Origin: Olsenella sp. SW781
GTDB taxonomy: Bacteria > Actinomycetota > Coriobacteriia > Coriobacteriales > Atopobiaceae
Assembly: GCF_012027725.1 (NCBI RefSeq)
Contig: NZ_SJOU01000002.1
Location: forward strand, 1 to 64,000
Direction: 5' to 3'
DNA: 64,000 nucleotides
Program-made: the position numbers and the translations under genes
Part shown: positions 48,265 to 63,978 of the stretch, piece by piece
Position numbering within the stretch: the first letter of the stretch is position 1
Layout: every line of letters starts with the position of its first letter
The notes under the pieces: generated by a model
Told to the model about the DNA's origin: nothing
The model's database searches: none
Seen by the model: only the letters and a program-made list of their open reading frames with translations

Positions 48265-48377
48265 ATGAGCTTTCGCGACAACCTTCAGCACCTGCGCGCA
48301 GAGCGCAACATGACCCAGGAGCAGCTGGCCATGCTGCTCGGCGTCTCCCGCCAGAGCGTCACCAAGTGGGAGGCCGA
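48265..48377 (+). pseudogene. XRE membrane regulator, 5' part, interrupted by the 13-kb element
   Basis: Encodes MSFRDNLQHLRAERNMTQEQ and LAMLLGVSRQSVTKWEAE, a normal XRE helix-turn-helix. The frame breaks at the element end, giving an unrelated tail and stop at 48420. Joining base 48377 to 61349 gives 1032 bp (344 codons) with no stop, reading TKWEAEKSQPEMDKLLKMCE. The start follows GACGAAGGGCAGACC. The truncated product may still bind DNA but lacks the membrane part. Confidence 0.92.
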
Positions 48378-48403
48378 ATCTTTCACTATTAAGGTGAATT
48401 CGA
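48376..48403 (+). other. attL: GA core plus element left half-site
   Basis: Host sequence GAGGCC is followed by the GA core (48376-48377) and the element half-site beginning ATCTTTCACTATTAAGGTGA. Its counterpart is attR at 61321-61348. The 2-bp core and dyad flanks are typical of large serine recombinases. Confidence 0.82.
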
Positions 48404-48444
48404 GAGTTTCCGCAGCTTGAGACACGTGAGACAATCGCAGGGGC

Positions 48445-48473
48445 TTGACGGCGTTAGCGCTTGCGAGTAGAAT
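48445..48473 (+). promoter_or_regulatory. Strong sigma-70-like promoter at the element left end
   Basis: TTGACG (48445-48450), 17-nt spacer, TAGAAT (48468-48473). It points into the element and would make a leader of about 200 nt before the first gene. It lies 67 bp inside the att site. Confidence 0.7.
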
Positions 48474-48627
48474 AATCAATGAGCGGCGTATAGGGGGCAG
48501 CGGCTTCCGTCGGGCTATTAGCGACGCGAAGTGGCCAGCGCATAATCGTCGCGCGCGCCTAACCCGAAAGGGGCACGAAAAAGAATCGGCGCGTCTCGGT
48601 CAACGAATCAAGCCAAGAAGCACCCCA

Positions 48628-48674
48628 CCGAGGAGTCCAGCGCAGACCCGAGCGGCCTGTGCGCTACTCCTCGG
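48628..48674 (+). promoter_or_regulatory. Leader hairpin able to mask the first ribosome site
   Basis: CCGAGGAGT (48628-48636) pairs with ACTCCTCGG (48666-48674), and inner bases AGCGCAGA/TGTGCGCT extend the stem. The right arm runs into the CGGAGG ribosome site of the gene at 48683. This could limit expression of the element's first operon. Confidence 0.5.
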
Positions 48675-48682
48675 AGGCTTTT

Positions 48683-49000
48683 ATGGCTACCCTCGAACCG
48701 CTTTCCACCAAACCCCAACTGAGCATGAGCGAGGCGACGACCCTCGGTTACGCGTCGCGTGCGACGCTGAACCGCTGGATTGAGCGTCGGCTCGTGCGCA
48801 CTGCCCTCGTGAAGGGCCAGCGCCTGATGCTCACGGAAGACCTTGAGCGCGTGCGCTCGCTGCGCGCCGAAGGCAAGGTGCCGGCACCGAACATCGACGC
48901 CGAAATCGACAAGATTGCGACGACTGCCGCCGCCATGCTGCCTGTCATGACCGATGCGCAGAAGAGCCGCCTCTCGGCCATTCTGGCTCAGTGCGCCTAG
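48683..49000 (+). CDS. Small helix-turn-helix (MerR/excisionase-like) protein, 105 aa
   Basis: The N-terminal half (LSMSEATTLGYASRATLNRW followed by IERRLVRTALVKGQRLMLTE) reads like a MerR/excisionase HTH with a wing. The C-terminal half is helical. It leads the element operon and may regulate it or steer the recombinase (directionality factor); neither is shown. The ATG follows TCGGAGGCTTTT. It ends 12 bp before the helicase gene. Confidence 0.68.
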   Translation: MATLEPLSTKPQLSMSEATTLGYASRATLNRWIERRLVRTALVKGQRLMLTEDLERVRSLRAEGKVPAPNIDAEIDKIATTAAAMLPVMTDAQKSRLSAILAQCA

Positions 49001-49012
49001 GCGGTGACGCTC

Positions 49013-51772
49013 ATGTCTGACGACGAGAAGCGCCTGCCGGGGGTGCTCCCGGAAATGGAGGGGACCGCCCCCGCGCCTGCCAGCGCTCCCGGGACGGCCA
49101 CAGCCCAAAACACCTTGTTTACCTCGAATAATACCACGGATTCGAGCGCTGATTGGCGACGAGTTAGCCTCGTGAGCAACATCGAGGGGGAGTACACCGA
49201 CAACCCCAGGAGCCGTCGGGACGGCTACATCGACGAGTTCATGCGGCGACTGGTCGCGTTCACTGGGGTCAGCACGGGCAGCTTTGAGCACGGTTGCCCC
49301 ATGTTGGACGCCCCCGACGCGGCGTGGCCGCTGATCGTGGGCGGGCTTATGGACTTCTGCGTGCGCGGGCAGGAGGACCCCGCCACCCGCGCCGAGTTCA
49401 TGGACCTCTTCGACCTCTTCGCGAACCGCGTGTGCGTCGTGCGCGACATCATCAAGCTGACCAAGGATAACAAGAAGGTACCGTGCAGCGTGACGGTCGC
49501 CGAGGGCTACGTCCCCCTCTACAACCGTGAGCACGCGACTGAGGGCACCGGCCTGAGCCGTGCCCCGGCCGACGCCGTGGCCTACGCGATGGCGGTCTAC
49601 GACGCCGAGTTCTATGAGGCCAAGGGCTTCCGTCAGGTCGTCGTCAAGGGCAGCGATGACATCGCCGAGTACTCACCGACCTGCAACGATGACGACACGG
49701 CCCCCTACGCCGTCAAGACGCATCGTGAGCTTGAAAGGCAGTTCCACCATTGGGGCCGTCACCTCGGCCAGCGTCAGCTCAAGCGCTACCTCGAGCACCT
49801 CCGAGACCTGCTCCCCGAGGTGGACTTCACCGAGGAGCTGGACGCGATGGAGTGCCCCATCGGCAACGGCATGCTCCGCCGCGACTTCTCCGGCGGGGAG
49901 GTCACGCTGCACGTGCGCCCCTACACTGCGGACGACTACCGTTTGGGCAAGTACGCAGGACTCCGCTTCGACACCGACGCGAACGGCGAGGTCATCCCCC
50001 CGGAGGAGCCCGTCTACCGCCGCGACGGCTTCCCGGACTGGAGGCCGGGCGAGTGGCTGCGCGACGTCATGGCCGACGAGGACGGCCGCAGGGTGCTCCG
50101 CGCGGTGCTCGTGCTGTTCCTGTTCCCGGCGGTGAACATCGAGAAGGCAGTCGTGTTCTACTCGCCGGGCCGCAGCGGCAAGGGCACCTACCTCGCCATG
50201 ATGCGCGCCATGGTGGGCCCGAAGCAGTTCCAGCAGCGGTATCTCGCGAGCGTGGGCCTTGAGAAGATGGGGCAGGAGTACTACCTCGCGCGCCTCGTGG
50301 GCAAGGTCGCGAACCTCGTGGACGAGACCGAGGTAACCTACCTAAAGAAGATGGCCGACGCCAAGAAGGTGCTCGGCGGCGACGTGGTGACGGGCCGCGA
50401 CCCCTACGGCAAGGCGCGCGAGTTCATCGCCAAGATGCTGCACGTCATCTGCATCAACTCCGACCTGAGCATCGCCGAGCAGACCGACGCCATCTTCGGG
50501 CGCTTCCTGTTCGTCGTCTTCCGAGAGTGCTTCCTCGACCGCCCCGGCGGCATCGACCGGCGCATCAAGGAGGACTTCATGCAAAGGCCCCAGACGCTCA
50601 GGTGGTTCGCCTACGACGCAATCGCGAACACCCCCTACTTCGAGACGTCGTCATACCTCGACGAGAACTCCTACGTCATCTCGTCGAACGAGGAGAACTG
50701 GGCGGAGTCGAACCCGACGATGCGCGCATGGCGGCTCCTGCGCGAGGAGGTAGAGACCTCCGGCGAGGACGGCCCGGCCAAGTGGGCGGGCGTGCGTGCC
50801 ATGCCGGTCTGCGTCGCCCACGCGCTCATGTCCTCCGCCAAGGAGCGCTACGAGGGCGAGGCCGGGAAGCTCCCGCGCCAGAACGGCCGCACGTTCCGCA
50901 GCACGCTCGAGCGCGCCGCCAAGGCCGACGGGTTCGTGCTCGTGCGCAACAAGGACGGCACCCCCAAGCAGTTCCCTATGGCCGAATGGTGGGTCGAGGA
51001 CGACATGAAGCCGCTCATGGACGCGCTGGGGGACGAGGGGCTGCGCAGCTGGGTGCGGGCCCATGCCAAGGCGCGCCCGCGCGCATGGCTCGTGCGTCGG
51101 GATGCGTGGGAACGCTATCTCCACGGCCGCACGTCGCTGAAATCGCAGGACATCGGCGCAGTGGAGGACAAGGCTGCGCTGCATGTCATCGAGGACGCGG
51201 GCATGGACGCCGGAGCCGCCCGCGAGGCGCTCGATTCGTTCGAGCGCGACTTGGGTCATATTGACATTCGAATCGAGCCGGACGACGAGGAGGCCTTCTC
51301 GGATGACGAGTTGGGGCCGTCGGAGTGGTTCCCGTCGGAGCGGTTCGACAGAGCTCTCCGCGAGAGGTACGGCCGCCTTAAGGGCGAGGCCGTCGTCGCG
51401 AGCCGCGCGCCGGGCGGCTACGAGCTCTGGCTGAATCCGTGGGCGGCCACCTTCGACGACCGCAACCCTACCGGCAACCCGCATTTCTCGTTCCCGGTCC
51501 CGTCGGGGGCGTCGCCGCGCGACGAGCTGGAGCACGTGACGCTCGCGCCCGTCGTCGAGCGCCACGTCGAGCGGGATGCCTCGTGGGAGGAGGTCGCGGG
51601 CGTCATCGAGGGCGCGGTTCGCGAGGCGCGCGAGGGCGAGGTCCGCGTCTGCGTGACCGCACCGACCGGCGTGGCCGCGCTGCCCAGTTTCGGTGAGTGG
51701 ATCAAGCTGCCGACCCGCTACACCTCGTGGCTCGTGCGGCCTGTCTCGCCGCCTGTCGGGGGCTCCTCGTGA
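49013..51772 (+). CDS. SF3-type helicase/primase (D5-like replication protein), 919 aa
   Basis: Walker A is FYSPGRSGKGTYLAMMRAM (Ser384 to Thr392), with the SF3 sequence order continuing NLVDETEVTYLKKMADAKKV and HVICINSDLSIAEQTDAIFG RF-like sensor region. The N-terminal third would be the D5_N/primase part, and the C-terminal third is acidic and specific. Such proteins drive autonomous replication of phage-plasmids and mobilizable elements. The ATG at 49013 follows CTAGGCGGTGACGCTC; the in-frame GTG at 49004 is an alternative. Confidence 0.82.
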   Translation: MSDDEKRLPGVLPEMEGTAPAPASAPGTATAQNTLFTSNNTTDSSADWRRVSLVSNIEGEYTDNPRSRRDGYIDEFMRRLVAFTGVSTGSFEHGCPMLDAPDAAWPLIVGGLMDFCVRGQEDPATRAEFMDLFDLFANRVCVVRDIIKLTKDNKKVPCSVTVAEGYVPLYNREHATEGTGLSRAPADAVAYAMAVYDAEFYEAKGFRQVVVKGSDDIAEYSPTCNDDDTAPYAVKTHRELERQFHHWGRHLGQRQLKRYLEHLRDLLPEVDFTEELDAMECPIGNGMLRRDFSGGEVTLHVRPYTADDYRLGKYAGLRFDTDANGEVIPPEEPVYRRDGFPDWRPGEWLRDVMADEDGRRVLRAVLVLFLFPAVNIEKAVVFYSPGRSGKGTYLAMMRAMVGPKQFQQRYLASVGLEKMGQEYYLARLVGKVANLVDETEVTYLKKMADAKKVLGGDVVTGRDPYGKAREFIAKMLHVICINSDLSIAEQTDAIFGRFLFVVFRECFLDRPGGIDRRIKEDFMQRPQTLRWFAYDAIANTPYFETSSYLDENSYVISSNEENWAESNPTMRAWRLLREEVETSGEDGPAKWAGVRAMPVCVAHALMSSAKERYEGEAGKLPRQNGRTFRSTLERAAKADGFVLVRNKDGTPKQFPMAEWWVEDDMKPLMDALGDEGLRSWVRAHAKARPRAWLVRRDAWERYLHGRTSLKSQDIGAVEDKAALHVIEDAGMDAGAAREALDSFERDLGHIDIRIEPDDEEAFSDDELGPSEWFPSERFDRALRERYGRLKGEAVVASRAPGGYELWLNPWAATFDDRNPTGNPHFSFPVPSGASPRDELEHVTLAPVVERHVERDASWEEVAGVIEGAVREAREGEVRVCVTAPTGVAALPSFGEWIKLPTRYTSWLVRPVSPPVGGSS

Positions 51773-51849
51773 GCCCGGCGGCGCGGCCGCGCGACGGCCC
51801 CGGCGGGGCCGAGCCAAGACTACCGATAGGGCATTGGAAGGAGATTGAT

Positions 51850-52155
51850 ATGTGCAAGGAGAAGTGCGCGGGCGGCGACGGTCTGGCGGCGCTCGTGGAG
51901 CGCACGGCGGTCGTCGAGCTGTTGCGCGAGGACCCGTGGATTGGGGCCTCGGCGCTCTCGGTGCTCGCGCGAGTGGCGGGCCCCGACGGGCTCCCACCAT
52001 GCGATGACGAGTCGCTAGGGGTGGCCCTGCGGGAGGCGACCGTTGCGCAGCTCGTGGGCGCGTGCGCGTCGCTGCCGACCGGCGACAAGACGACGCTGGC
52101 GCGGGCGCTCGGCCGCATCGCCGAGGCGCGTGCTGCGAATGAAATGAACGACTAG
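51850..52155 (+). CDS. Small element protein, function unknown, 101 aa
   Basis: Short Ala/Leu/Asp-rich protein beginning CKEKCAGGDGLAALVERTAV and ending IAEARAANEMND. No motif is recognised. The ATG follows GGAAGGAGATTGAT. It lies between the helicase and another small gene in one direction, so it probably belongs to the mobilization operon. Confidence 0.65.
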   Translation: MCKEKCAGGDGLAALVERTAVVELLREDPWIGASALSVLARVAGPDGLPPCDDESLGVALREATVAQLVGACASLPTGDKTTLARALGRIAEARAANEMND

Positions 52156-52169
52156 AGGGAGTGATTGCA

Positions 52170-52496
52170 GTGAGCAAGAGAGCCAAGACGAGCGCCGAGA
52201 TTCAGGCCGAGCTGTCGAAGCTGGACGAGGAGCGCAAGGCCGTCCGCCGCGCGCTCGACGTGGCCAAGCGGCGCGAGGCCGCCGAGGCCGCAGCTGCCAA
52301 GGCCGAGGCGGACGCCCGTCTCGCCGCGCGGCTCCTCGGAGTCGTCCGGAAGTCCCTCGGGGACGACGCGGGCGACGACGTGCTGACCGCTGCCGTGGAG
52401 GCCCTTCTGGGCCTCACGGTCAGCGGTCTGCCCGCGCCCGAGTGGGCCCTGACGCAGGCGCGCAAGCGCCTCGGCAGCGGCCCCGAGGGCGCGTAG
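52170..52496 (+). CDS. Small coiled-coil protein upstream of oriT-like region, 108 aa
   Basis: Begins SKRAKTSAEIQAELSKLDEE followed by a long charged helix (KAVRRALDVAKRREAAEAAA). The layout resembles small mobilization accessory proteins that bind relaxase or oriT, but this is inference. The GTG at 52170 follows AGAGGGAGTGATTGCA; GTG at 52161 is an alternative. Confidence 0.65.
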   Translation: MSKRAKTSAEIQAELSKLDEERKAVRRALDVAKRREAAEAAAAKAEADARLAARLLGVVRKSLGDDAGDDVLTAAVEALLGLTVSGLPAPEWALTQARKRLGSGPEGA

Positions 52497-52620
52497 CGAG
52501 CGCCGCAGCCATGGAGCGGATCGCGGCGGCAGCCGCTTCCGCGACATGGGCGGCGCGAGCGGGGGTGGGCGCCCCTGCGGCGGGGGGGGGCGCAGCCCCC
52601 TCCCGAGAGCAGCACCGCAG

Positions 52621-52698
52621 CCCCACCCGGAGGGTGGGGCGTAGGTGCAAGCCCCACCCTGCTTCCGCAGGGGGGTGGCTTGACCGGGCGCAGCCCGG
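52621..52698. other. Candidate oriT: three clustered hairpins before the relaxase
   Basis: CCCCACCC/GGGTGGGG (52621-52639), an imperfect hairpin built on AAGCCCCACCCTGC (52649-52662) with GCAGGGGGGTGGCTT (52667-52681), and CCGGGC/GCCCGG (52684-52698). They fill the 273-bp gap between the accessory gene and the relaxase, the usual oriT position for MobV elements. No nick site can be placed. Confidence 0.45.
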
Positions 52699-52769
52699 CA
52701 AGAGTGGCGCCTCATGGGCGACGACCAAGCGCCCGACGAGGCACAGACGAGGAAGGGAGAGTGGGCCGG

Positions 52770-54980
52770 ATGGCAAGCGCGCAGTGGAAAAAGGCCAAGG
52801 GACGCAGTGCGGCGAAGGCGTGGCTCCGCCACAACGACAAGGGGCACCGCGCCGACAAGGCCGTGACGCACGAGAATCCGGACATCCAGCCGGAGCTGAG
52901 CCACCTCAACTTCGAGGTGGGCGCGACGGCGGGCCTTACGCTCAAGGAGAAGTGCGCGCGGCTCGATGCCGTGCTCGACAAGTACGGGTTCGACGACGCT
53001 ACGGGCAAGGGCACCGTCAACGAACGCGTAGCGATGGTCTCGCGCTGCGCCTACCCTCCCAAGGCGCTCGTGGAAGCGGCGCGCGACCCGGAGACTGGCA
53101 AGTGTTACGTCCACGCGCCGGGCTCCACGCCGAGCGCCGAGCTGCTTGCTGCCGAGGCGAGGCTCGCCGAGTGGTTCGAGGCGTTTGCTAAGCTTTGCGA
53201 GGACGAGGACGGCGAGGAGGCGGTCATCGCTGCTTATGTCGATGTTGACGAGCAGCACGAGTACATCGACGAGAACGGCCTTACGGTCATGTCCGCGCCG
53301 CACCTGCACCTCTACGAGGCCCCGGTCTGCGAGGGCCCGGTGGAGCTGCCGCGCGAGGTCGTCTTCGAGACCGTCAGGGACGCCGACGGCGCGACCGTCT
53401 GGGCCAAGAACGACGACGGCATGCCCAAGCTCGACGAGCTGCGCCGCCCCGTGCCCGAGTACGTGCTCGACGGCGACGGCAACCGCGTCCCCGAGCGCGG
53501 CCGCGACGGCAAGATCAAGCGTCGCCGCGTCTTCGAGGAGCGCGTCGTCTACGATACGATGAAGGACGCCGACGGCAACGAGGTGCCAAAGCTCGACGCC
53601 GAGGGCAAGCCCGCCCCCAAGCTCTACCGCTCCGGCAAAAAAAGGGGGCAGGTCGTCACCGAGCGCGTGACCGAGCGCCACCTCAAGGGTCGCGACTTCT
53701 GCGACCGCTCGCGCATCGTGAGGCTCAACAACGCCGCACATGAGATGACGAAGGAGCGCTTCAAGTGCGACTGGAACGAGCACGAGCCGGGCACCTACGA
53801 GCGCCAGAAGGGCCGCGCGGGCAAGACCAACGAGCAGCTTAAGAAGGACTCGCTTGCGCGTCTCGACGCCAAGGAGCTCGCCAGGGCCGAGGCGGAAATC
53901 TCGGCCAACGTCGCGGCGTCTGAGGCGACGCTCTACGACGCCCAGGCAGTGCTGTGGGACGCGCAGGCCGCCGCGCACGAGTCGGCTGTCGAGTCCGTGC
54001 TTGAAGACGAGATTGCGCGCGGCCTCGTGACGCGTGAAACGCGTCACGCCAAGGCCGAGGCCGAGGCGGCGAAGACCGAGGCCAAAGTTGCAAAGGCGGA
54101 GGCGGCGACCGCCAAGCGGGAGGCCGCCGAGGCCGTGCGCGAGCGCGACGCCTACGCGGGCGAGAGCTACCGCACCAAGGACGGTCGCACCGTTCTCGGC
54201 ACCAAGGGCCTCAAGGCCGAGAACGAGAGGCTGCGCGCCGAGGGCGAGCGGATCGCCGAGGCGAACGCCGGGCGCTCCGCCGCCCTCGACGAGCGCGAGC
54301 GGGCCCTCAGGGCCGGAGAGGACAAGCTCGCCGAGGACCGCGCCGAGGTCTCAAGGCTCCTCGACGGCGACGACCGCACGGCGACCGTCGAGGACTACCT
54401 CCCGGCCGAGTACCACGCGACGAACGATTTTTATCTGCGCAACAGCCTCCGTTACACGGCGGAAATCACGCTCCAGAACGAGACCATGGCAAACGGAGGC
54501 GAGCCCCCAATCATTCACGCGCCGGGGCTCCGCGAGACGGTCAAGCGGGCCGAGGAGGCGCGACAAGGCTACGAGGCCGCCGCCGAGGAGGCCCGCCGCG
54601 AGCGCGACGCCCTGCGCGACTTCCGCGAGGACATGGTCCATCTGCTTGAGGGCCTGTGCGGGTCGGTCAAGCGCAGGCAGATGGACAACGACCGCAAGGG
54701 CCGCAAGGCCACGGCGACGTTCTTCAAGGCCGTTCACGGCATGTTCGTCGAAGTGCTCAAGACGCTCGACGACGCGCATGTGCCCGAGGCACCGACGCTC
54801 GACCGCGCGGCGTGGGACGACGCCCTGAGCGCCGCCGAGGCTGAGCAGGCCCGCGCCGACCAGCGCACGCGCGTAATCGCAGCGGCCCGCGTTCCCGCGC
54901 CCGGCATCCCGCGCGAGACGCCGGGCTGGGGGACGCCGAGGACGCCGAAGCCGAGCGGCTGGGACGGCCCGAGCATGTAG
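52770..54980 (+). CDS. MobV/Pre-like relaxase, 736 aa
   Basis: The N-terminus (QWKKAKGRSAAKAWLRHNDK then NPDIQPELSHLNFEVG) follows the Mob/Pre pattern of a basic start, an R-H-N-D/N block and the ENPDI..SHLN motif. The metal-binding His motif is in APHLHLYEAPV (about residues 176-186), preceded by VDVDEQHEYIDENG. The C-terminal half is a long charged coiled coil (residues 370-640) as in MobV proteins. It would nick oriT and lead transfer with helper secretion. The ATG follows GGAAGGGAGAGTGGGCCGG. Confidence 0.72.
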   Translation: MASAQWKKAKGRSAAKAWLRHNDKGHRADKAVTHENPDIQPELSHLNFEVGATAGLTLKEKCARLDAVLDKYGFDDATGKGTVNERVAMVSRCAYPPKALVEAARDPETGKCYVHAPGSTPSAELLAAEARLAEWFEAFAKLCEDEDGEEAVIAAYVDVDEQHEYIDENGLTVMSAPHLHLYEAPVCEGPVELPREVVFETVRDADGATVWAKNDDGMPKLDELRRPVPEYVLDGDGNRVPERGRDGKIKRRRVFEERVVYDTMKDADGNEVPKLDAEGKPAPKLYRSGKKRGQVVTERVTERHLKGRDFCDRSRIVRLNNAAHEMTKERFKCDWNEHEPGTYERQKGRAGKTNEQLKKDSLARLDAKELARAEAEISANVAASEATLYDAQAVLWDAQAAAHESAVESVLEDEIARGLVTRETRHAKAEAEAAKTEAKVAKAEAATAKREAAEAVRERDAYAGESYRTKDGRTVLGTKGLKAENERLRAEGERIAEANAGRSAALDERERALRAGEDKLAEDRAEVSRLLDGDDRTATVEDYLPAEYHATNDFYLRNSLRYTAEITLQNETMANGGEPPIIHAPGLRETVKRAEEARQGYEAAAEEARRERDALRDFREDMVHLLEGLCGSVKRRQMDNDRKGRKATATFFKAVHGMFVEVLKTLDDAHVPEAPTLDRAAWDDALSAAEAEQARADQRTRVIAAARVPAPGIPRETPGWGTPRTPKPSGWDGPSM

Positions 54981-55486
54981 GACGGGCCGCGTCTGGCGCC
55001 CCCTGCGGGCGCTGGCGCGGCGTCGGCCCGTCCCCGCGTCCGGGAGCGCCCCGGGGGCGCTTCGAGACCGTCAGGGCGCGCCAAACCCCTCGAATCAAAA
55101 CGGCGAAACGAGCGACGGGGGCACAGCCTCGTCGCACACCCTCCCCCTAGGGGCCAGTTCGGGGCCGATGCCGCACCTCTCGGCGTCACCGGCCCCGGAT
55201 TGGCCCCCTTGCTTGCTCCCGCTAGGCCCCATTCATTGGCGCTTTAGCGCCCAATCAAGGGCCGACCCTTGAGCGTGGAAACCACCCTGCACAGGTTTGC
55301 ACAGAAACCTGTGCAGATGTTTTCGCAGTTAAACGCCATAATCTTGGAGCTTGCACAGGTTTGGCTCCCGTTTTGAAACTCGTCACACCATGCACACAAT
55401 TGAAGTCGCGGCCGTTCGCTGGCCGTTCAAACGCCAATGATTGGCCTTCTCGTGCGACAATGGATAGGCACCATGAGAGGAGTCCG
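54981..55486. other. 506-bp gap with hairpins, no gene seen
   Basis: Contains several short dyads. CTGCACAGGTTT (55287-55298) and AAACCTGTGCAG (55305-55316) are perfect inverted arms, with a third GCACAGGTTT at about 55353. TTGGCGCTTTAGCGCCCAA near 55236-55254 forms a hairpin. The first half is GC-rich with CCCCGGGGGCG-type runs. It may hold a replication origin or transcription signals; no open frame is convincing. Confidence 0.5.
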
Positions 55487-55597
55487 ATGCCCCTTCAATC
55501 CATCGAGATATGCGCCGGCGCGGGAGGCCAGGCCCTCGGCCTCGAACAGGCCGGCTTCGAGCACGTGGCGCTCGTCGAAATTGAGACGCTTGCATGA
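55487..55597 (+). pseudogene. Truncated DNA (cytosine-5) methyltransferase, N-terminal fragment, 36 aa
   Basis: Encodes IEICAGAGGQALGLEQAGFE followed by HVALVEIETLA, which is motif I and the start of motif II of C5 DNA methyltransferases. It then stops. Adding two bases after GCATG would give A-C-E-T-R-H-A-L, close to the family's motif, so a small deletion or the junction itself broke it. The rest of the gene is not found up to 61 kb. The start follows GAGAGGAGTCCG. Confidence 0.8.
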
Positions 55598-55728
55598 GAC
55601 GCGTCACGCCCTCTGATAAAACCTTCATTTACTGCTGGAAATGAGACGCTCAGAGGATTTGCTCGTATCGAACCAAACTCGGTTTGGTAAACTACAAGCA
55701 CGGTTCCGTTTTAGGGAATGGAGTGGAT

Positions 55729-56007
55729 ATGGGCAATCCGGATGGCGGCTTCATTAACGAACGTACTGGCGCCTATGTTTCTCCCGAACGCGCACACCAG
55801 CATGTTGGCGAAGAGCATGCGTTTGACGGCTATGAGAAAGCACGGAGCAGGTCGACGGGCAACTTCTACATGCGTGAAACTGGGTCGGGCGCTCCTTCCT
55901 CAGTTAATTCCGCCCTTGAAGCCCTCGAGAATATTGAGCGTACCAGATCTTTGATGCGCATGACGTCTATGCCTGGCATTCTTGGTTATGATGGACGTTC
56001 AGCTTAG
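55729..56007 (+). CDS. Small protein upstream of the E2-E1 gene, 92 aa
   Basis: Sequence begins MGNPDGGFINERTGAYVSPE and ends MTSMPGILGYDGRSA. I do not recognise a family, and it has no clear ubiquitin fold. It overlaps the E2-like gene by 20 bp, so they are probably coupled. In related operons a small modifier or target is encoded at this position, which makes it a candidate substrate; this is inference. The ATG follows GGGAATGGAGTGGAT. Confidence 0.6.
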   Translation: MGNPDGGFINERTGAYVSPERAHQHVGEEHAFDGYEKARSRSTGNFYMRETGSGAPSSVNSALEALENIERTRSLMRMTSMPGILGYDGRSA

Positions 56008-56230
56008 AGAGTACCTCTGTTCCCTTGCACGACAGGAGGGCTTCTCTGTCGAATCTTGTGATGAGTTTGTCTTATCGTTCAACTTCGAGGGAGACTATGT
56101 TCAGATAAAATGGATTAATACTGAGACGTTTCCTTTCGAGATTCCCGAGTTTCAGCTTGTCGGCAATTTCCCCGACAAGCTTATTGGGATTCCTCATGTG
56201 TCTCCAGACGGACGAGTTTGTGTTTTATAA
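55988..56230 (+). pseudogene. E2-like (UBC-fold) N-terminal part of an E2-E1 gene, split by insertion, 80 aa
   Basis: The translation follows a prokaryotic E2 pattern: FEGDYVQIKWINTETFPFEI (with PFEIPEF) and then IPHVSPDGRVCVL. The Cys after HVSPDGRV is at the place of the E2 catalytic cysteine. The frame ends three residues later in AT-rich inserted DNA. The rest of the protein seems to resume at 57,400. Together they would be about 600 aa, the size of Cap2-type E2-E1 fusions. The start is weak; TTG at 55982 is also open. Confidence 0.68.
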
Positions 56231-56320
56231 TTACACATATCGTTGATGTTGAAAAATTAGAAATCATAATCAAAAACTCTGAAAAACAAACTTTTTAATT
56301 TTGAAAAGGAAGGATATTAA

Positions 56321-57309
56321 ATGAAACACTTACCTAAAAGTACACCTACGGAAATATTGAATGACCCATACGGATTTACTTACAAAGAAATGTCGGAAGT
56401 AATTGGAGAGGATAAAGCAAGAGCCTTATATACGGAATTATATAAACAGCCATTTCACAAAAAAATCTATCAATATCAACAAAAAAAGTCTATAAAAGTA
56501 GCGATACTGAAAAGTATGTTTATGAATTGAAAGACAACAGGTATATCGAAACGGTTTTTATTAAACGGCGAGATGGTGGGACTGTTTGCGTAAGTACGCA
56601 AGTTGGTTGTTCTGTTGGCTGTATTTTTTGTGAGTCCGGACGCAATGGTTTTGTTCGTAATCTAACACCGTCTGAAATTGTGCAGCAGGTCATATTGATA
56701 CGTCAAAAAGTAAATCGTATCGTTTTTATGGGAATGGGAGAACCTTTATTCAATTACGACAACTTGATTGCAGCAATCCATATTCTTCGAGATAGAAATG
56801 GACTTAACTTTCCAACCGACGGCATTACCGTATCAACAGTTGGTCCAGTTAATCAATTAAAAAAATTGCGCGAAGAACATCTAAAAATTCAGTTGACAAT
56901 ATCTTTACATGCAGCAACACAGGCTGCGAGAAACTGTATCATTCCTCATATGCACATGTACGCTATTGAAGATGTTGTTAAGCAAGCATTGTCCTATTCA
57001 CAAAGGCATAATCGAAAAGTGGTATTTGCGTATTTACTTTTACCAGGTATAAATGACCGTTCCTCAGATATAAGGCAACTTGCAAAATGGTTTAAGGGCA
57101 AAAATGTTATGATTAACGTGCTGCAATACAACCCGACGAGTAATTCAAAAATTAGAGCACCACAAAAACAAGAAATGGTTGCGTTCAAACATCAATTAGA
57201 GCAAACAGGACTTGAAGTTACCATGAGAGTTTCTCATGGTAGAGAGATTAAAGCAGCTTGTGGACAATTAGCTAATACATATAATAAAGCCAAAAAACAA
57301 CAAAAATAA
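56321..57309 (+). pseudogene. Cfr/RlmN-like radical SAM 23S rRNA methyltransferase, split in two frames at A_AAA_AAG
   Basis: The family methylates A2503 of 23S rRNA; Cfr-type members give resistance to several ribosome-targeting antibiotics. The radical SAM motif is STQVGCSVGCIFCESG (C-x3-C-x2-C). FMGMGEPLFNYDN, SLHAATQAARN, FAYLLLPGINDRSSD, YNPTSNSK and the methyl-transfer Cys in IKAACGQL match Cfr/RlmN; AYLLLPGIND and YNPT are closer to Cfr. The first 56 codons are in one frame. At 56482-56488 the heptamer A_AAA_AAG permits a -1 shift that continues VYKSSDTEKYVYELKDNRYI into the rest, about 328 aa in total. The ATG follows AAAAGGAAGGATATTAA. Confidence 0.8.
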
Positions 57310-57339
57310 TTTAATTAAAAGAGCCAGACGCACAGACGC

Positions 57340-57388
57340 AGAGCCGATAATATGCAGTTTGAAATACTGCTGTTATCGGCTCTTTTTT
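57340..57388 (+). terminator. Rho-independent terminator of the Cfr-like gene
   Basis: AGAGCCGATAA-TATGCAGT pairs with ACTGC-TGTTATCGGCTCT and is followed by TTTTTT (57383-57388). It lies 30 bp after the stop, close to the right end of the inserted AT-rich cassette. Confidence 0.88.
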
Positions 57389-57399
57389 GATTTTAATTT

Positions 57400-58956
57400 G
57401 TGCCCCCAATAACCATATTGGAGCAAAATCAGAACTGTTGCTTGTCGTTCTTTGATTTCCGCAGCAGCTTTGAAAAATCAAAGCCGCCGTTTCTTTTTAT
57501 TTTTGATAAAACCACCGCTCGAGTCGATCCATGTGATCCCGCAGGTGCATTCTGCCAAGTTCTCATCAGACTTCGGGAATTATTGCATTCAGGCGTTGAC
57601 GGGATAAACAAGAGCGACTATTTCGATGAGTTCACCGCATATTGGAGTTATAACAGTAGCTTTAAGGGCATCTTTTTTTCATGCGCTAATGTCAGCGATG
57701 AATTCAAAGAACTCGTGGTAGCTCCAAGCGATATTCCAAAGGGATGGCTTATCGCCGACTCTAAAGAAGCCGCCGAACGATATGTTGGCAGTTCATTAGA
57801 TGACGCCATGATCAAAGCATGTATCTATGTTCCTTTAGATCAGGAATTGCGATATCCGTTTCCAGATGGTCGAGCTGAGTGGATTGACGTCATATCCTCT
57901 TCCTGCCCCTGTGGCAACCAGCTCCGAAGTGCCCTCAGAAAGGCTGGACGCAATCCTTTGGTAGTATTGTTCTCACAACCTGCCAAAAACGGAAGGGTCC
58001 TTGCTGCGCTTGTATTTAATTTTGAGGCATTCAATTCTAAAGCAGCCCTTCAGAAAGGTTTGTTTGAACTGAGATATCTGGATGACGAAATGACAGATTC
58101 TGAGTTCAATGCGAAGCTGCGATCATTAAGCAGGACAATCAAGCCTGGTCAGCTCGCGAGAGCTCATGTCGAGGATCTGCGCGGCAGTAGACTTCTGAAC
58201 AGGGGCGGCGTCGGTCGAATGCTCGACTTTGATTCCGTGCTAATGTTGGGATGTGGGTCGCTAGGTTCGGTCGCTGCCGATGCCTTTGCTAGATTGGGAG
58301 TGAAAAGCCTCACTTTAGTTGATAATGATTTCATAATGCCGGAAAATGTCGCGCGTCATATCTGTGGCCTGGATAATGTGATGATCAATAAGGCGGTTGC
58401 CACGAGAAACCGCATCCGCTTGTTAGCCCCGTGGTGTGAGTGCGTGCCTCAAGCGCAGGATATTCACCTTTATCTTGATTCTCTCACCGATTCATCCCCA
58501 AAACCCGGGTTAGTTGTAGTGGCGACCGGTTCGCTATCTACAGAGCTGCATGCCTTTAAAATATGGAGGGACCTCTACCCGGATACTCCAATCATGGCAA
58601 TATGGATGGAACCATATGGGGTTGCGGCTCATGCACTTTTGCTGAACTCCCCAACCGCGCTCGATAAGTTAGCACTTAATGACAATGCTGAATTCGATGG
58701 AGGAATTGTTATTAATGCTAACGAGCTCTCGAAGCGTGAGTCGGGATGTGCTTCAACATTTGTTCCCTATGCAGGTTCTGACGTGTTAATTTTCGTTAAT
58801 ACGCTACTCAGCGTTATTCCGAATTGCATAAATTCATGCGATGGATACCGCTTCGATTGGTTCGGAAAACTATCAGTCTCCCATAATTATCCAGTGTTGC
58901 TTCGTGATGGGGCGCTCGAGCATCACGATTATTCTTTCGAGATAGTGAGGCTGTGA
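57400..58956 (+). CDS. E1-like (ThiF-fold) adenylyltransferase part of an E2-E1 fusion, 518 aa
   Basis: The C-terminal half is an E1/ThiF domain: nucleotide loop VLMLGCGSLGSVAADAFARL (from about 281), acidic strand end TLVDNDFIMPENVARHICGL, Lys in NKAVATRNRIRLLAPW. A candidate thioester Cys lies in ESGCASTFVPY (about 449). The N-terminal 250 residues (from CCLSFFDFRSSFEKSKPPF) would be the rest of the E2 part and a linker. The GTG at 57400 is only the first open codon; the native start is probably upstream in the E2 fragment. JAB follows with TGATTTG spacing. Confidence 0.8.
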   Translation: MPPITILEQNQNCCLSFFDFRSSFEKSKPPFLFIFDKTTARVDPCDPAGAFCQVLIRLRELLHSGVDGINKSDYFDEFTAYWSYNSSFKGIFFSCANVSDEFKELVVAPSDIPKGWLIADSKEAAERYVGSSLDDAMIKACIYVPLDQELRYPFPDGRAEWIDVISSSCPCGNQLRSALRKAGRNPLVVLFSQPAKNGRVLAALVFNFEAFNSKAALQKGLFELRYLDDEMTDSEFNAKLRSLSRTIKPGQLARAHVEDLRGSRLLNRGGVGRMLDFDSVLMLGCGSLGSVAADAFARLGVKSLTLVDNDFIMPENVARHICGLDNVMINKAVATRNRIRLLAPWCECVPQAQDIHLYLDSLTDSSPKPGLVVVATGSLSTELHAFKIWRDLYPDTPIMAIWMEPYGVAAHALLLNSPTALDKLALNDNAEFDGGIVINANELSKRESGCASTFVPYAGSDVLIFVNTLLSVIPNCINSCDGYRFDWFGKLSVSHNYPVLLRDGALEHHDYSFEIVRL

Positions 58957-58957
58957 T

Positions 58958-59443
58958 TTGATTCAGATTTCACTCGATGAAAGATTCTCTCTTTCTATTG
59001 CCTCAGAAGCGATAAACAGGTTGCAGGATTATCTTAAAGATGCAGGTTTTAATAGCGAATCCGGAGGGATTCTGCTCGGCTGCCAACAGGAAAATTCGCT
59101 TGATTGTTTCATTCTAGACTTCACACTTCCAAATCCTGAGGACGACGCAGGTCCATATTACTTCGTGAGAAAAGCTCGACCCGCAGAAAAATTAATTGAA
59201 CGCATCTGGCATAAGAGTAATGGGAAAATCAATTATATTGGCGAATGGCATACACACAATGAGGATAGGCCAACCCCTTCGTCAACCGATATGGCTCTTT
59301 TGCGTCAAGCTGCAACGTCGGGCGCCAGTCCGTACGGCTTTGTTTTTTTAATTATTATTGGGAATAATCGAGAGGCGTTCTTAGCTTTTACACGCACTGG
59401 CGAACGTGTAGAAAAAATCAAATCAACCTATTTTTGCTGCTAA
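58958..59443 (+). CDS. JAMM/JAB-type deconjugating metallopeptidase (Cap3-like), 161 aa
   Basis: JAMM motif: Glu in SESGGILLG (about 34), His98 and His100 in GEWHTHNEDRPTPSSTD, Ser108 and Asp111. This is the exact E...HxH-x7-S-x2-D zinc site. In CBASS type II and related operons such enzymes cleave a modifier from its target after E1/E2 conjugation. The TTG start follows GTGAGGCTGTGA and is 1 bp after the E1 stop. Length fits Cap3-type proteins. Confidence 0.87.
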   Translation: MIQISLDERFSLSIASEAINRLQDYLKDAGFNSESGGILLGCQQENSLDCFILDFTLPNPEDDAGPYYFVRKARPAEKLIERIWHKSNGKINYIGEWHTHNEDRPTPSSTDMALLRQAATSGASPYGFVFLIIIGNNREAFLAFTRTGERVEKIKSTYFCC

Positions 59444-59620
59444 TATATCCCGCGTTTTGCCCGAGCTTCTAATTCAGATACAGATTTGATTGAATGACTA
59501 TCTCATCTAGTAACACTTGTGGATAAAACTCTGCTGCCGCTGCATATCCCCTCGTCAGTTCATATGCCGGTGATATTGTTTTCGTGTATTGCTTTTCGGA
59601 TTGTCAACCGATTTGTGCGT

Positions 59621-61273
59621 CTAGGCGGCCGTTTCGGCCTCTTCGCCCACCTTCGGCGTCACCCTGATGCGCGAGAAGTCGAAGACGCCGCCGTGCTTTC
59701 CGTCTCGTGTGCCGCCCTTGCGCTTCACGGGGTCGATGCGGACGTCGAGCAGGAAGTCGAGCGCGGCTCGCTTGGTCGCGAGGTCGGCCTCGTGGAATGC
59801 TTTCGCCGGGTCGATGGCCTCGGCAACCTCTCGCGGCATGACGGCCCGCGTGGCCTCGTCGGCCTCGCGCCGCTGCTCTACGCGTATGGCCTCGATGCGC
59901 TCGCGTGCCCTCTCGCGTCGACCTTGCAGGTCGCGGCCCTCGATGATGCCTTCGTTATATTCTCGCTCCGCCTTCTCGATAAGGCGCTCCTGCCGGGCAA
60001 CCTCTGCCTCGTAGTCGCGCGACGCTCGTGCTCCGCGCTGGATCACGAACGACGCGCGCACCTCCTCGCGGTCGAGGTACTTCTCGACCAGCACCTCGAC
60101 GTACTTGTCCGTGTAGCTGGCGAGCGCGCACACGTGGGCGCTCTCGCCGTGCGCGTGGTTCGGGCAGACGTATGAGCCGCCCTTGCCACCTTGGATGTGG
60201 AGCGTGTGGCCGCAGACGCCGCAACGGAACAGCCCGCTGCCGATGTGGCGGCGCACCTTCGGCGACATGAGGTTGGTGCGGCGGGCGGAGTCGTCGAGCA
60301 CGTCCTGCACGCGCCACCACGTCTCGCGGTCGATGATGGGCTCCCACGCGCCGCTGACCGGGTGGCCGTCCCCGTCGAGCCACAGCATCGAGTACCACTT
60401 GCCGGAGCCGTCGCCGCCCTTCTTGCTCTTCGAGGTGGGCGTGTACCCGACGTAGGCCGCGTACTTCGGGTTTCGCAGCATGAGCCGCACGGTAGCCGAG
60501 TACCACGGCTGCTCGGGCGGCAGCTCGCGGGGCCGGTCAGGGTGCGCCTTATTGAACTCGACGGCCTTTGTGTATGCGGGCCTTGGGACGCACGGCACAT
60601 CTTCAAGGCCGTCCTCCGCCTCGCCCGATAGGGCACGCGCGATGGCGTCGAGCGACGCGCCGCGAAGAAATGCCCGGTAGACGGCGCGCACGACCTCGGC
60701 CTCGTCCTCGACGACGCGGGCCACGCGCAGCCGTCCCTGCTCGTCGCGGTGCATCTCACGAACGTAGCCGATGGGTCGCGCGCCGGTGAAGAGCAGGCCC
60801 TTGTCGGCGCGGTCCTTGTTCGCCGCCCGCTGTCGCTCGCCCTTGTGCGCCACCTCGTAGGCGGCGAACGTGGCGCGCATTCGCAGGAACAGCTCGCCCA
60901 TCGGAGAGCGCGTGTCGAGCGCCATGTCGCCGCCCTTGGCGTCGGCCATGTCGAGTCCGTGGTACTTGCACTGATCGAGCCACCATTCTAGTTGGCGGGG
61001 CTGGCGTGTGAGGCGGTCGATGTCCCAAAAAATCACAGCGTTGATGCTGCCGTCCTCGACGGCACGCGTCATCCGCTCGTACTCCGGCCGCTTGCCTCCG
61101 GGTTTGCTCGCCGATACGGAGTTGTCGCAGAAGACCTCCTCGACGGGCCACCCGGCGCGCTCGGCCCACTCGCGGCAGTATTTCTCTTGGCGCTCCACGC
61201 CCTCCTCGCGGCCGGTCGCATCGAGCGATATACGGGTGTAAATCGCGGCCCTGACGTGTTTCGCCTGTCTCAT
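59621..61273 (-). CDS. Large serine recombinase (integrase of the element), 550 aa
   Basis: The resolvase domain begins HVRAAIYTRISLDATGREEG; the nucleophile is Ser16. RQEKYCREWAERAGWPVEEV and FWDIDRLTRQPRQLEWWLDQ follow. The recombinase domain is IGYVREMHRDEQGRLRVARV onward, then a zinc ribbon (LFRCGVCGHTLHIQGG, YVCPNHAH, about 347-375) and a coiled coil. The ATG at 61273 follows CAGGGAGAGACGGCAT; TTG at 61294 is less likely. It lies 50 bp from attR and points inwards, as usual for these integrases. Confidence 0.94.
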   Translation of the reverse strand: MRQAKHVRAAIYTRISLDATGREEGVERQEKYCREWAERAGWPVEEVFCDNSVSASKPGGKRPEYERMTRAVEDGSINAVIFWDIDRLTRQPRQLEWWLDQCKYHGLDMADAKGGDMALDTRSPMGELFLRMRATFAAYEVAHKGERQRAANKDRADKGLLFTGARPIGYVREMHRDEQGRLRVARVVEDEAEVVRAVYRAFLRGASLDAIARALSGEAEDGLEDVPCVPRPAYTKAVEFNKAHPDRPRELPPEQPWYSATVRLMLRNPKYAAYVGYTPTSKSKKGGDGSGKWYSMLWLDGDGHPVSGAWEPIIDRETWWRVQDVLDDSARRTNLMSPKVRRHIGSGLFRCGVCGHTLHIQGGKGGSYVCPNHAHGESAHVCALASYTDKYVEVLVEKYLDREEVRASFVIQRGARASRDYEAEVARQERLIEKAEREYNEGIIEGRDLQGRRERARERIEAIRVEQRREADEATRAVMPREVAEAIDPAKAFHEADLATKRAALDFLLDVRIDPVKRKGGTRDGKHGGVFDFSRIRVTPKVGEEAETAA

Positions 61274-61320
61274 ATGCCGTCTCTCCCTGAACAAGTTTGT
61301 GCTGTTCAGGCCTTATTTTA

Positions 61321-61348
61321 TCGCATTCACCTATCTAGCGGAAGATGA
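61321..61348 (+). other. attR: element right half-site plus GA core
   Basis: The half-site TCGCATTCACCTATCTAGCG and AAGAT is followed by the GA core (61347-61348) and host sequence GAAGAGCC. Read in reverse it matches the left half-site at 20 of 26 bases, with AGGTGAAT identical. Confidence 0.82.
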
Positions 61349-62270: not shown

Positions 62271-62375
62271 TGAAAAGGGGACGGGTTATTTCTCTCAGGG
62301 AATTTGGGACAGGTTATGCCCCGAGGGCATAACCTGTCCCAAATTCCCTGAGAGAAATAACCCGTCCCCTTTTCA
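62271..62375. repeat. Family D palindrome with 51-bp perfect arms, second copy
   Basis: Arms 62271-62321 and 62325-62375 are exact reverse complements around CGA. It shares AAAAGGGGACGGGTTATTTC and CTCTCAGGGA with the element at 46216; the inner parts differ (GGTTATGCCC against GGCCTGAGGC). Its right arm contains the stop codon of the minus-strand sirtuin gene. Confidence 0.96.
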
Positions 62376-63230
62376 AATCACTTCCGCTGCGCCCACGTCG
62401 AGAAGGATGCTCTGCTCGGCGATTTCCGCCGGAGCCACGGCCTCCCCAAGGTTCACGCAGGCGTAGGTGGCGCGCGGGTTCTCGGCTGCCATGCGCCAGA
62501 AGGGGTACTTAATGATGACGGGGGTGTTGGCGCCCACGCCGATCTCAAGGAGCAGCAGGCGCGAGCCCCGGTGACGGCGGACGAAGTCCCGGTAGTGGGT
62601 CGCGGCGGCGTGCCATCCCTCGTCCTCCACGAAGGTGTCGTCCGCGCGCAGGTTCATGGTCATGGGCGCCCCGCAGACGGGGCAGCGCGGCACGAGCCCC
62701 GCGGGCACGCGCATGTCGCGCTGCTCGGCGACCATGCGCAGCACCGCGGCCTCGTTGTCGTAGGTGCGCGCGTGGCACGGGACGCCGCACTGCCACAGGC
62801 CGTAGTCGCCCTGCGTGTAGAAGAGGCGCCCCTTGGGAAAGCCCGCGCGCTGGAAGCAGTGGTCCACGTTGGTGGTGAGGACGAAGAAGTCCTTCTCGCC
62901 CAGCGCCTCGAGCAGGTGCTCGTAGAGCGGGGTGGGCACCGGGTCGTAGCGGTTGATCTTGATGTAGCGGCTCCAGTACGCCCAGCGCTCCTCCTCGGAC
63001 GGGAAGGGGAAGAACCCGCCGGAGTACATGTCCGTGAAGCCGTACTTCTCGATGAAGTCGGAGAAATGCTCGCGGAAGCGCGCGCCGGAGTATGTGAGCC
63101 CGGCTGCTGTGGAGAGCCCGGCCCCGGCTCCCACGAGCACGGCGTCCGCAGCGTCAAGCGCGTCGGCGAGCCGCTCGAGCTCCGTCGAGGAGCTCCTGGT
63201 AGATGCGCTGGTCAGAGTCGAGAAAAACAT
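62373..63230 (-). CDS. SirTM-type (class M) sirtuin, protein ADP-ribosyltransferase, 285 aa
   Basis: NAD-binding GAGAGLSTAAGLTYSG, TTNVDHCFQRAGFP and CPVCGAPMTMNLR are sirtuin motifs in the bacterial SirTM variant. Four Cys (CGVPC and CPVCG) form a zinc site. SirTM enzymes ADP-ribosylate a lipoylated carrier (GcvH-L) and act with a linked macrodomain hydrolase. The ATG overlaps the macrodomain gene by 77 bp. The stop lies in a palindrome arm. No GcvH-L or lipoate ligase is in the window. Confidence 0.85.
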   Translation of the reverse strand: MFFSTLTSASTRSSSTELERLADALDAADAVLVGAGAGLSTAAGLTYSGARFREHFSDFIEKYGFTDMYSGGFFPFPSEEERWAYWSRYIKINRYDPVPTPLYEHLLEALGEKDFFVLTTNVDHCFQRAGFPKGRLFYTQGDYGLWQCGVPCHARTYDNEAAVLRMVAEQRDMRVPAGLVPRCPVCGAPMTMNLRADDTFVEDEGWHAAATHYRDFVRRHRGSRLLLLEIGVGANTPVIIKYPFWRMAAENPRATYACVNLGEAVAPAEIAEQSILLDVGAAEVI

Positions 63231-63978
63231 CGAAGATCACCTTGAGCCCGTGGTCGGTGTATACGAGGTGGTCGAGGACGGCGCGCTCGGCGACGCGCGC
63301 CGCCTCCTCCTGCGGAAAGCCGAAGACACCCGTTGAGATGCAGCAGAACGCAAGCGTGGAGATGCCGCGGCGCGTTGCCTCCTCGAGGCACGCCCGGTAG
63401 CAGCTGGCGAGAAGAACCTCGTCGTGCGGGGTTGGACGGCCGTCCCGCACGATGGGTCCCACGGTGTGGAACACGTACCGGCACGGCAGATTGTGCGCGG
63501 ACGTGACTTTGACCTCGCCCGTGGGCTCGGCATGCCCCTGCGCCGCCATGAGGCGCGCGCAGTCCAGGCGCAGCTGCATGCCGGCGTAGGTGTGTATCGC
63601 GTTGTCGATGCAGTGGTGCCCGGGCACAAAGCACCCGAGCATCTGGTCGTTGGCGGCGTTCACGACGGCGTCTGCCGCGAGGCGCGTGATGTCGCCGCGC
63701 CAGAGCGCCACGCGCGAGAACACGGGGTCCGCGGCGTCGACGGGCGGGAGCGCCGTCGCGTCGACCGCCCCGCCGCGCTCGCGCAGGCGCTCCGCGAGGT
63801 AGGCGTCCTGCACGGCCAGTGCCTCTGCCGCCACGGGCGCGGGCGGGCGAACGTTCATGAGTGCGCGCAGGAGGGCCCGCTGGTCGTCGGTGCCCTCCGG
63901 CACCACGATCTTCTCGCCGTCCTCGCGCTCCGCCAGCAGTACGTCGATGAGATAGCGCCTGCGCTCGTCCTGGGTCAT
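63154..63978 (-). CDS. SirTM-linked zinc macrodomain protein, ADP-ribosyl hydrolase, 274 aa
   Basis: The macrodomain core is RVALWRGDITRLAADAVVNA followed by ANDQMLGCFVPGHHCIDNAI; the GCFVPGHHC block is the zinc-binding insert of SirTM-linked macrodomains. CISTGVFGFPQEEAARVA is the phosphate-binding loop. The N-terminal 90 residues form a helical extension. It should remove ADP-ribose placed by the adjacent sirtuin. The ATG at 63978 lies near the right window edge; the promoter is beyond it. Confidence 0.88.
   Translation of the reverse strand: MTQDERRRYLIDVLLAEREDGEKIVVPEGTDDQRALLRALMNVRPPAPVAAEALAVQDAYLAERLRERGGAVDATALPPVDAADPVFSRVALWRGDITRLAADAVVNAANDQMLGCFVPGHHCIDNAIHTYAGMQLRLDCARLMAAQGHAEPTGEVKVTSAHNLPCRYVFHTVGPIVRDGRPTPHDEVLLASCYRACLEEATRRGISTLAFCCISTGVFGFPQEEAARVAERAVLDHLVYTDHGLKVIFDVFLDSDQRIYQELLDGARAARRRA

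What the first reader, a model, noticed from the sequence alone, without database searches (positions are those of the whole stretch)
55729..59443. Bacterial ubiquitin-like conjugation operon (small protein, E2-E1, JAMM peptidase) on a mobile element
An E2-like fragment with HVSPDGRVC, an E1/ThiF protein and a JAB peptidase with a complete JAMM site lie in one direction. This matches the Cap2/Cap3 parts of CBASS or Bil/Bub-type operons, yet no CD-NTase or effector is present. The 92-aa upstream protein is a candidate modifier, target or adaptor of an undescribed subtype.
Basis: partly seen in the sequence, partly recalled or inferred. Interest (0 to 1): 0.85.

Follow-up and report, generated by a model that had tools for sequence, protein, structure and literature searches.

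The report
Broken CBASS conjugation module, swapped substrate
A mobile element in an actinobacterium carries the ubiquitin-like conjugating half (Cap2 and Cap3) of a known anti-phage system, but the enzyme that is normally attached to targets has been replaced by a tiny unrelated protein bearing the same C-terminal attachment tail, and the conjugating enzyme itself is cut in two by a piece of foreign DNA.

Summary
(1) The "E2 fragment" (55988-56228) and the "518-aa E1" are the two halves of one E2-E1 (Cap2-type) gene. They are split just after the E2 catalytic cysteine by a 1,275-bp insert (56229-57503). The insert is 97.6% identical to part of a Firmicutes mobile element and carries a frameshifted RlmN-type methyltransferase gene. 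(2) The family is identifiable: the closest intact relatives in the same order are full type II CBASS operons (CD-NTase, Cap2, Cap3, Cap15). Here the CD-NTase core and effector are absent from the locus and were not found elsewhere in the genome. (3) The 92-aa first protein is a fusion. Residues 1-51 are a small Coriobacteriia-restricted domain. Its last 14 residues, TSMPGILGYDGRSA, are the CD-NTase conjugation tail of this CBASS clade (relatives end TSAPAVLKHDGRSG, TSEPAILKDDARSA), with the permitted terminal Ala. The element is 12.97 kb, inserted by a serine recombinase into an HTH gene. Best reading: a tail-bearing substitute substrate for Cap2, later inactivated by the insert. The main rival is that the tail is a relic of a truncated CD-NTase; a Ruminococcus albus plasmid shows such a relic. 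Single occurrence; no function shown.

The parts
48377..61347 (.). Mobile element, about 12.97 kb, with GA dinucleotide core, inserted in an HTH regulator gene
   Evidence: Left flank matches L088/L089 up to 48377 and right flank from 61347; the joined gene is intact at 96-97% identity in about a dozen relatives of the same genus
55490..55597 (+). 5' remnant of a C5 cytosine DNA methyltransferase, truncated just upstream of the cassette
   Evidence: PF00145 E 1.3e-6, first 32 positions only
55660..55700 (.). Inverted repeat upstream of the first gene (ACCAAAC-TCG-GTTTGGT), possible operator
   Evidence: function inferred
55729..56007 (+). Protein P, 92 aa: Coriobacteriia small domain (residues 1-51) fused to an extension ending in a CD-NTase-type conjugation tail; SD-like GGAG upstream of the ATG
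   Evidence: domain homologues 46-67% identical; tail ranks 1 of 4645 C-terminal 15-mers
55963..56004 (+). Conjugation tail TSMPGILGYDGRSA with C-terminal Ala
55988..56228 (+). 5' part of cap2: N-terminal half of the E2 domain up to the catalytic Cys (HVSPDGRVC) plus one codon
   Evidence: PDLC00850 E 1.6e-7; A1 profile E 2e-33, the window being one of its three rows
56229..57503 (+). Insert of about 1,275 bp interrupting cap2: 3' end of a cysteine-rich KTR gene, a frameshifted RlmN-type rSAM methyltransferase gene and a hairpin terminator (57340-57383, then T run)
   Evidence: 97.6% identity to Monoglobus plasmid NZ_OY725736.1; the same limits against L032 and L093, the same right limit in L094
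57504..58956 (+). 3' part of cap2: rest of the E2 domain and E1 domain (GCGSLGS, D352/N360/R363 in A1 numbering, ESGCAST Cys)
   Evidence: PDLC00850 E 1.6e-92; ThiF E 1.8e-15; alignment A1
58958..59443 (+). cap3: JAMM isopeptidase with complete metal site
   Evidence: PDLC00896 E 6.4e-38; PF14464; similar to PDB 9ild
59621..61294 (-). Large serine recombinase of the element
   Evidence: PF00239, PF07508, PF13408

Best explanation
The locus is a rearranged and now interrupted type II CBASS conjugation module. Shown by sequence: a Cap2-type E2-E1 gene and a Cap3-type JAMM gene follow a first gene whose product has no CD-NTase core, carries a small Coriobacteriia domain, and keeps the C-terminal tail by which CD-NTases of this clade are presented to Cap2. 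Inferred: while Cap2 was intact, its E1 domain adenylated the C-terminal Ala of protein P, passed it by thioester to the E2 cysteine and joined P to lysines of target proteins, and Cap3 released it. P thus took the place of the CD-NTase as the modifier, and the outcome would be tagging or relocation of targets rather than cyclic-nucleotide signalling. Later a 1,275-bp fragment of a Firmicutes mobile element landed one codon after the E2 cysteine. It separates E2 from E1 and brings a terminator, so conjugation is most likely dead in this genome.
For: One split gene: PDLC00850 matches both halves, and the in-silico junction restores the family sequence. Insert limits are shared with independent copies. 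Intact relatives are CD-NTase, Cap2, Cap3, Cap15 with the same gene overlap. The tail of P matches the CD-NTase tails of L003 and L004, ranking first of 4645 C-terminal 15-mers (score 77, next 49), and of L082. In the overlap the tail frame is conserved (DGRSA/DGRSG) while the Cap2 frame varies (MDVQL, MDDLV, MVALD), so selection has acted on the tail. C-terminal Gly/Ala is what Cap2 uses (PMC10097602; PMC11153139). P's domain is complete: homologues end a few residues after the conserved FYM. E1, E2 and JAMM catalytic residues are present.
Against: Single occurrence: no other P-tail fusion in 397 genomes of the order or in plasmids or viral contigs. Residues 52-77 of P match nothing, and the GC change near residue 54 fits a recombination joint. 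The R. albus plasmid keeps a bare CD-NTase C-terminal relic before intact Cap2, so tails can survive as relics. The Cap15 effector is gone as well. No reads were available to exclude a mis-assembled insert. No structure supports docking of P on Cap2.
Confidence: 0.5

Rival explanations
1. Relic: recombination into the 3' end of a CD-NTase gene joined the end of an unrelated small gene to the surviving tail codons. P is an accidental fusion, and the Cap2-Cap3 remnant is decaying cargo that has also lost its effector and taken an insert.
For: R. albus plasmid pRUMAL01 keeps only the last ~59 residues of a CD-NTase before an intact Cap2-Cap3-2TM set. GC drops between residues 1-54 and 55-92 of P (56.8 to 49.1%). 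A truncated methyltransferase lies just upstream. Effector lost and Cap2 interrupted.
Against: The fusion is in frame, keeps the whole domain with its own start and SD, and keeps the tail to the last residue. Cap2 and Cap3 show no decay apart from the recent insert (97.6% identical to its known copy).
Confidence: 0.37
2. P is only a translational leader: its overlap with the cap2 start couples translation of Cap2, whose real substrate is a CD-NTase supplied from elsewhere.
For: The first gene overlaps the cap2 start by 17-20 bp in all three related operons, so an upstream ORF may be needed to translate Cap2.
Against: No CD-NTase of the closest profile is found in this genome. Coupling needs only the stop-start overlap, not the TSxPxxL residues upstream of it, which are also kept.
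Confidence: 0.08
3. Assembly artefact: the split of cap2, or the P-cap2 joint, is a chimera made during assembly.
For: Insert-like modules exist in many genomes, including 9 others of 199 of the order; no reads are held.
Against: The contig is 203 kb in a 99.7%-complete, 0.34%-contaminated genome, and element ends are consistent with relatives. The insert differs from the copies compared (about 2% plus indels).
Confidence: 0.05

Closest known systems
Type II CBASS (CD-NTase, Cap2, Cap3, effector), Coriobacteriia clade with Cap15 (L003/G091, L004/G105)
   Same: E2-E1 fusion 31% identical over its whole length, JAMM protease, gene order, gene overlap, C-terminal tail motif of the first gene
   Different: No CD-NTase core, no effector; the first gene is a 92-aa fusion with an unrelated domain; cap2 is interrupted
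Ruminococcus albus 7 pRUMAL01 Cap2-Cap3-2TM set without CD-NTase (L081)
   Same: Cap2 and Cap3 follow a CD-NTase C-terminal tail without the catalytic core
   Different: There the remnant is plain CD-NTase sequence with no new domain; the 2TM effector is kept and Cap2 is uninterrupted
6A-MBL system (NCBIfam NF058523, cap2_3)
   Same: CBASS-like E2-E1-JAB enzymes with a partner other than a CD-NTase (MBL operons are called related to type II CBASS in PMC13373217)
   Different: There E1 and JAB are one protein with a metallo-beta-lactamase partner; the window proteins score far below its cut-off (65 vs 320 bits)
Bil and Bub operons
   Same: Bacterial E1, E2 and JAB proteins with a small first protein
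   Different: Those systems are organised differently and use ubiquitin-like or other modifiers (own knowledge); here an E2-E1 fusion of CBASS type and no sign of a ubiquitin fold in P

Membership tests
Type II CBASS | CD-NTase (cyclic oligonucleotide synthase) | tested here: not met
   No cyclase in the cassette and no PDLC00774 match in the whole genome at E 1
Type II CBASS | Cap2: N-terminal E2 fused to C-terminal E1 in one protein | tested here: inconclusive
   Both domains present and collinear with PDLC00850, but the gene is split by an insert, so no fusion protein can be made as it stands
Type II CBASS | Cap3: JAMM isopeptidase | tested here: met
   PDLC00896 E 6.4e-38; complete JAMM residues; the NF050170 hit is below its cut-off (70 vs 200 bits)
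Type II CBASS | Cyclic-nucleotide effector gene | tested here: not met
   None next to Cap3; no Cap15 receptor domain in the genome
Type II CBASS | First-gene product ends in a tail with C-terminal Gly/Ala used by Cap2 | tested here: met
   TSMPGILGYDGRSA versus TSAPAVLKHDGRSG, TAAPAVLKRDGRSG, TSEPAILKDDARSA; Gly/Ala rule from PMC10097602
Type II CBASS | Conjugation of the first-gene product to targets and anti-phage activity | not testable with these tools
   Needs bench work
Bil/Bub-type systems | Ubiquitin-like modifier with beta-grasp fold | tested here: inconclusive
   No Pfam, PADLOC or NCBIfam match for P; AlphaFold model of P is low confidence, pLDDT 63, without a beta-grasp; no fold match
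6A-MBL | cap2_3 fusion with metallo-beta-lactamase partner | tested here: not met
   NF058523 65 bits versus cut-off 320, E1 and JAB in separate proteins; no further gene in the cassette that could encode the partner

The most novel reading that the evidence does not exclude
A Cap2-Cap3 system whose modifier is neither a CD-NTase nor a beta-grasp protein: a small domain that acquired the CD-NTase conjugation tail by fusion. It would show that the tail is a portable tag that lets Cap2 attach unrelated domains to targets.
Probability: 0.4. Interest if true: 0.82.

Novelty: new variant of a known kind. Interest (0 to 1): 0.6.

Why it matters
Cap2 has been described as the only known transfer system that activates a protein without the ubiquitin fold (PMC12355090), and that review suggests that other such substrates may be undiscovered. 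A natural tail swap gives a direct test: does the ~14-residue tail suffice to make an unrelated protein a Cap2 substrate, and what does a CBASS conjugation machine do without a cyclase? If it proves to be a relic, the case still shows how CBASS operons break, leaving the tail because it overlaps the cap2 start.

Tried and rejected
Bil/Bub membership: best profiles are CBASS E1-E2 and JAB, so not filed there. CD-NTase or Cap15 remnants elsewhere in the cassette: tblastn found only the tail as a meaningful match. P as a plain CD-NTase fragment: its extension (44 aa) matches no cyclase profile, unlike the R. albus relic. Structures of P (single sequence, pLDDT 63) and of the E2-E1 of L068 (4-row alignment, pLDDT 38) are too poor to use. 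Genome contigs and viral-contig scans found no closer Cap2 and no P relatives in viral contigs; no tblastn match in phages. A DNA search with the recombinase gene found no close relative of the element, so no second copy of the cassette. The RlmN-type gene was considered as a functional part of the operon and rejected: it lies inside a separable insert with its own hairpin and close copies in other mobile elements.
Full report
What is there. On the + strand, the region 55729-59443 holds a first small gene, an E2-like piece, an E1-like ORF and a JAB ORF, with further ORFs of an insert between. The first is a 92-aa protein (P). It overlaps the start of an ORF that carries the first half of an E2 domain and ends just after the catalytic cysteine. 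A 1.3-kb stretch of much lower GC (35% against 43-57% in the neighbouring genes) follows. Then come a long ThiF/E1 ORF and a JAB ORF. The flanking DNA is 65-70% GC.

The E2 and E1 pieces are one gene. The best PADLOC model, PDLC00850 (CBASS E1-E2), matches the E2 fragment over its positions 26-82 and the E1 ORF over 79-557. Prok-E2_B likewise matches residues 26-80 of the first piece and continues at residue 35 of the second. The DNA between is 97.6% identical over 1,277 aligned positions to Monoglobus pectinilyticus plasmid NZ_OY725736.1, where it forms part of a larger stretch with relaxase and recombinase genes. Of two copies in genomes of the order, L093 has both limits and L094 the right limit at the same places. 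The insert therefore runs from about 56229 to 57503. It contains the end of a KTR gene, an RlmN-type rSAM methyltransferase gene (frameshifted here, intact on the Monoglobus plasmid) and a hairpin terminator. Leaving it out in silico gives HVSPDGRVCV-FDKTTARVDP. In intact relatives the same place reads HVGPTGQICAFDRETNIPCP and HVGPNGIVCTFDQASNTVHP. The GTG start at 57400 and the first 35 residues of the '518-aa' protein are insert sequence.

Identity of the module. Two genomes of the same order hold the closest intact relatives (31% identity over the full length): L003/G091 and L004/G105. Both are complete type II CBASS operons: a DncV-like cyclase (PDLC00774, E 8e-100 and 5e-102), E2-E1, JAB and a Cap15 effector. 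A third, more distant operon of the phylum, L082/G584, also has a cyclase of this family. Such Cap2 genes are rare here: 5 of 397 genomes of the order, the window's own included. The window's own genome has no PDLC00774 cyclase and no Cap15 domain. The JAB protein has a complete JAMM site, matches the CBASS JAB profiles best and, among solved structures, resembles 9ild.

Protein P. Its first ~51 residues belong to a small protein family seen only in this order in these searches: ten genomes besides the window's, E-values from 1e-7 to 2e-15 and identities 46-67%. The other members aligned are 53-90 aa, mostly with Gly/Ser/Arg-rich N-termini, and end a few residues after the conserved FYM. P carries about 40 further residues, and the last 14 read TSMPGILGYDGRSA. 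The cyclases of the related operons end TSAPAVLKHDGRSG (L003), TAAPAVLKRDGRSG (L004) and TSEPAILKDDARSA (L082). Scored against the first two, P's end ranks first of 4,645 C-terminal 15-mers from the window and loci (77, next 49). With the last five residues, which overlap cap2, left out, it still ties for first. Other CBASS cyclases examined end differently (for instance IISSSASA), so the motif looks specific to this clade.

Selection on the tail. In all three related operons the first gene's end overlaps the cap2 start by 17-20 bp. In the overlap the tail frame keeps DGRSG or DGRSA, while the Cap2 frame reads MDVQL, MDDLV and MVALD. The tail, not the start of Cap2, is what was conserved. This says that the tail was used in the lineage. 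It does not date the loss of the cyclase core.

How it most likely works. Cap2 activates the C-terminal Gly or Ala of a CD-NTase, passes it to its E2 cysteine and joins it to target lysines, and Cap3 reverses this (PMC10097602; PMC11153139; summarised in PMC12355090). P offers the same tail with an accepted terminal Ala. The best-supported inference is that P replaced the CD-NTase as the protein conjugated by Cap2 and released by Cap3. Shown: the domain fusion, the tail, the catalytic residues of Cap2 and Cap3, the lack of cyclase and effector, and the interruption. Inferred: that P was conjugated, that it served defence, and that the insert ended it.

The main rival is that P is a relic of recombination. 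The R. albus plasmid pRUMAL01 keeps only a 59-residue C-terminal piece of a CD-NTase (PDLC00795 E 3e-13) before intact Cap2, Cap3 and a 2TM effector, next to brxL. It shows that tails can outlive the cyclase. Against it for the window: the fusion keeps a whole conserved domain with its own start, in frame, and the tail complete to the last residue. GC drops from 56.8 to 49.1% between P's domain and its extension, which fits a joint near residue 54 under either reading.

The mobile element. Comparison with relatives of the same genus, which hold the HTH regulator gene whole at 96-97% identity, puts the element's ends at 48377 and 61347 with a GA core, 12.97 kb in all. It carries a large serine recombinase, a DUF5906 (primase-like) protein just under Pfam's cut-off and a weak Mob_Pre match. 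No close relative of the recombinase DNA was found in 396 genomes of the order. A C5 methyltransferase is cut short just before the cassette.

Verdict. Anatomy is secure; function is open. As a family member it fails type II CBASS on two tested features (cyclase, effector) and is best called a derivative of it. It is a new variant of a known kind, seen once, in a broken state.

Noticed in passing
L081 2400-5667 (Ruminococcus albus 7 plasmid pRUMAL01): Cap2-Cap3-2TM effector set whose CD-NTase is reduced to a C-terminal relic ending SESA, next to a divergent brxL gene.
   Followed up: partly
56229-57503: KTR end plus RlmN-type methyltransferase module from a Firmicutes-type mobile element; similar modules in 9 other of 199 genomes of the order. 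The window copy is frameshifted relative to the intact copy in L032.
   Followed up: partly
62373-63978 (- strand): Weak SIR2-like protein next to a macro-domain protein, like SirTM-macro pairs; just outside the element's right end.
   Followed up: no
55660-55700: Near-palindromic ACCAAAC-TCG-GTTTGGT upstream of P, possible operator of the cassette.
   Followed up: no
L058, L059, L061, L062, L064: The small Coriobacteriia domain family of P (GGFxNxRTGxYVSxxRAHQHVG...GNFYM) has no known function and lies near TIR/ThsB-like (L061, L064), protein-kinase (L059) and PD-T4-6-like kinase (L058) genes, once in tandem (L062).
   Followed up: partly
55490-55597: Start of a C5 DNA methyltransferase gene cut off after about 35 residues, suggesting a cargo exchange site in the element.
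   Followed up: partly
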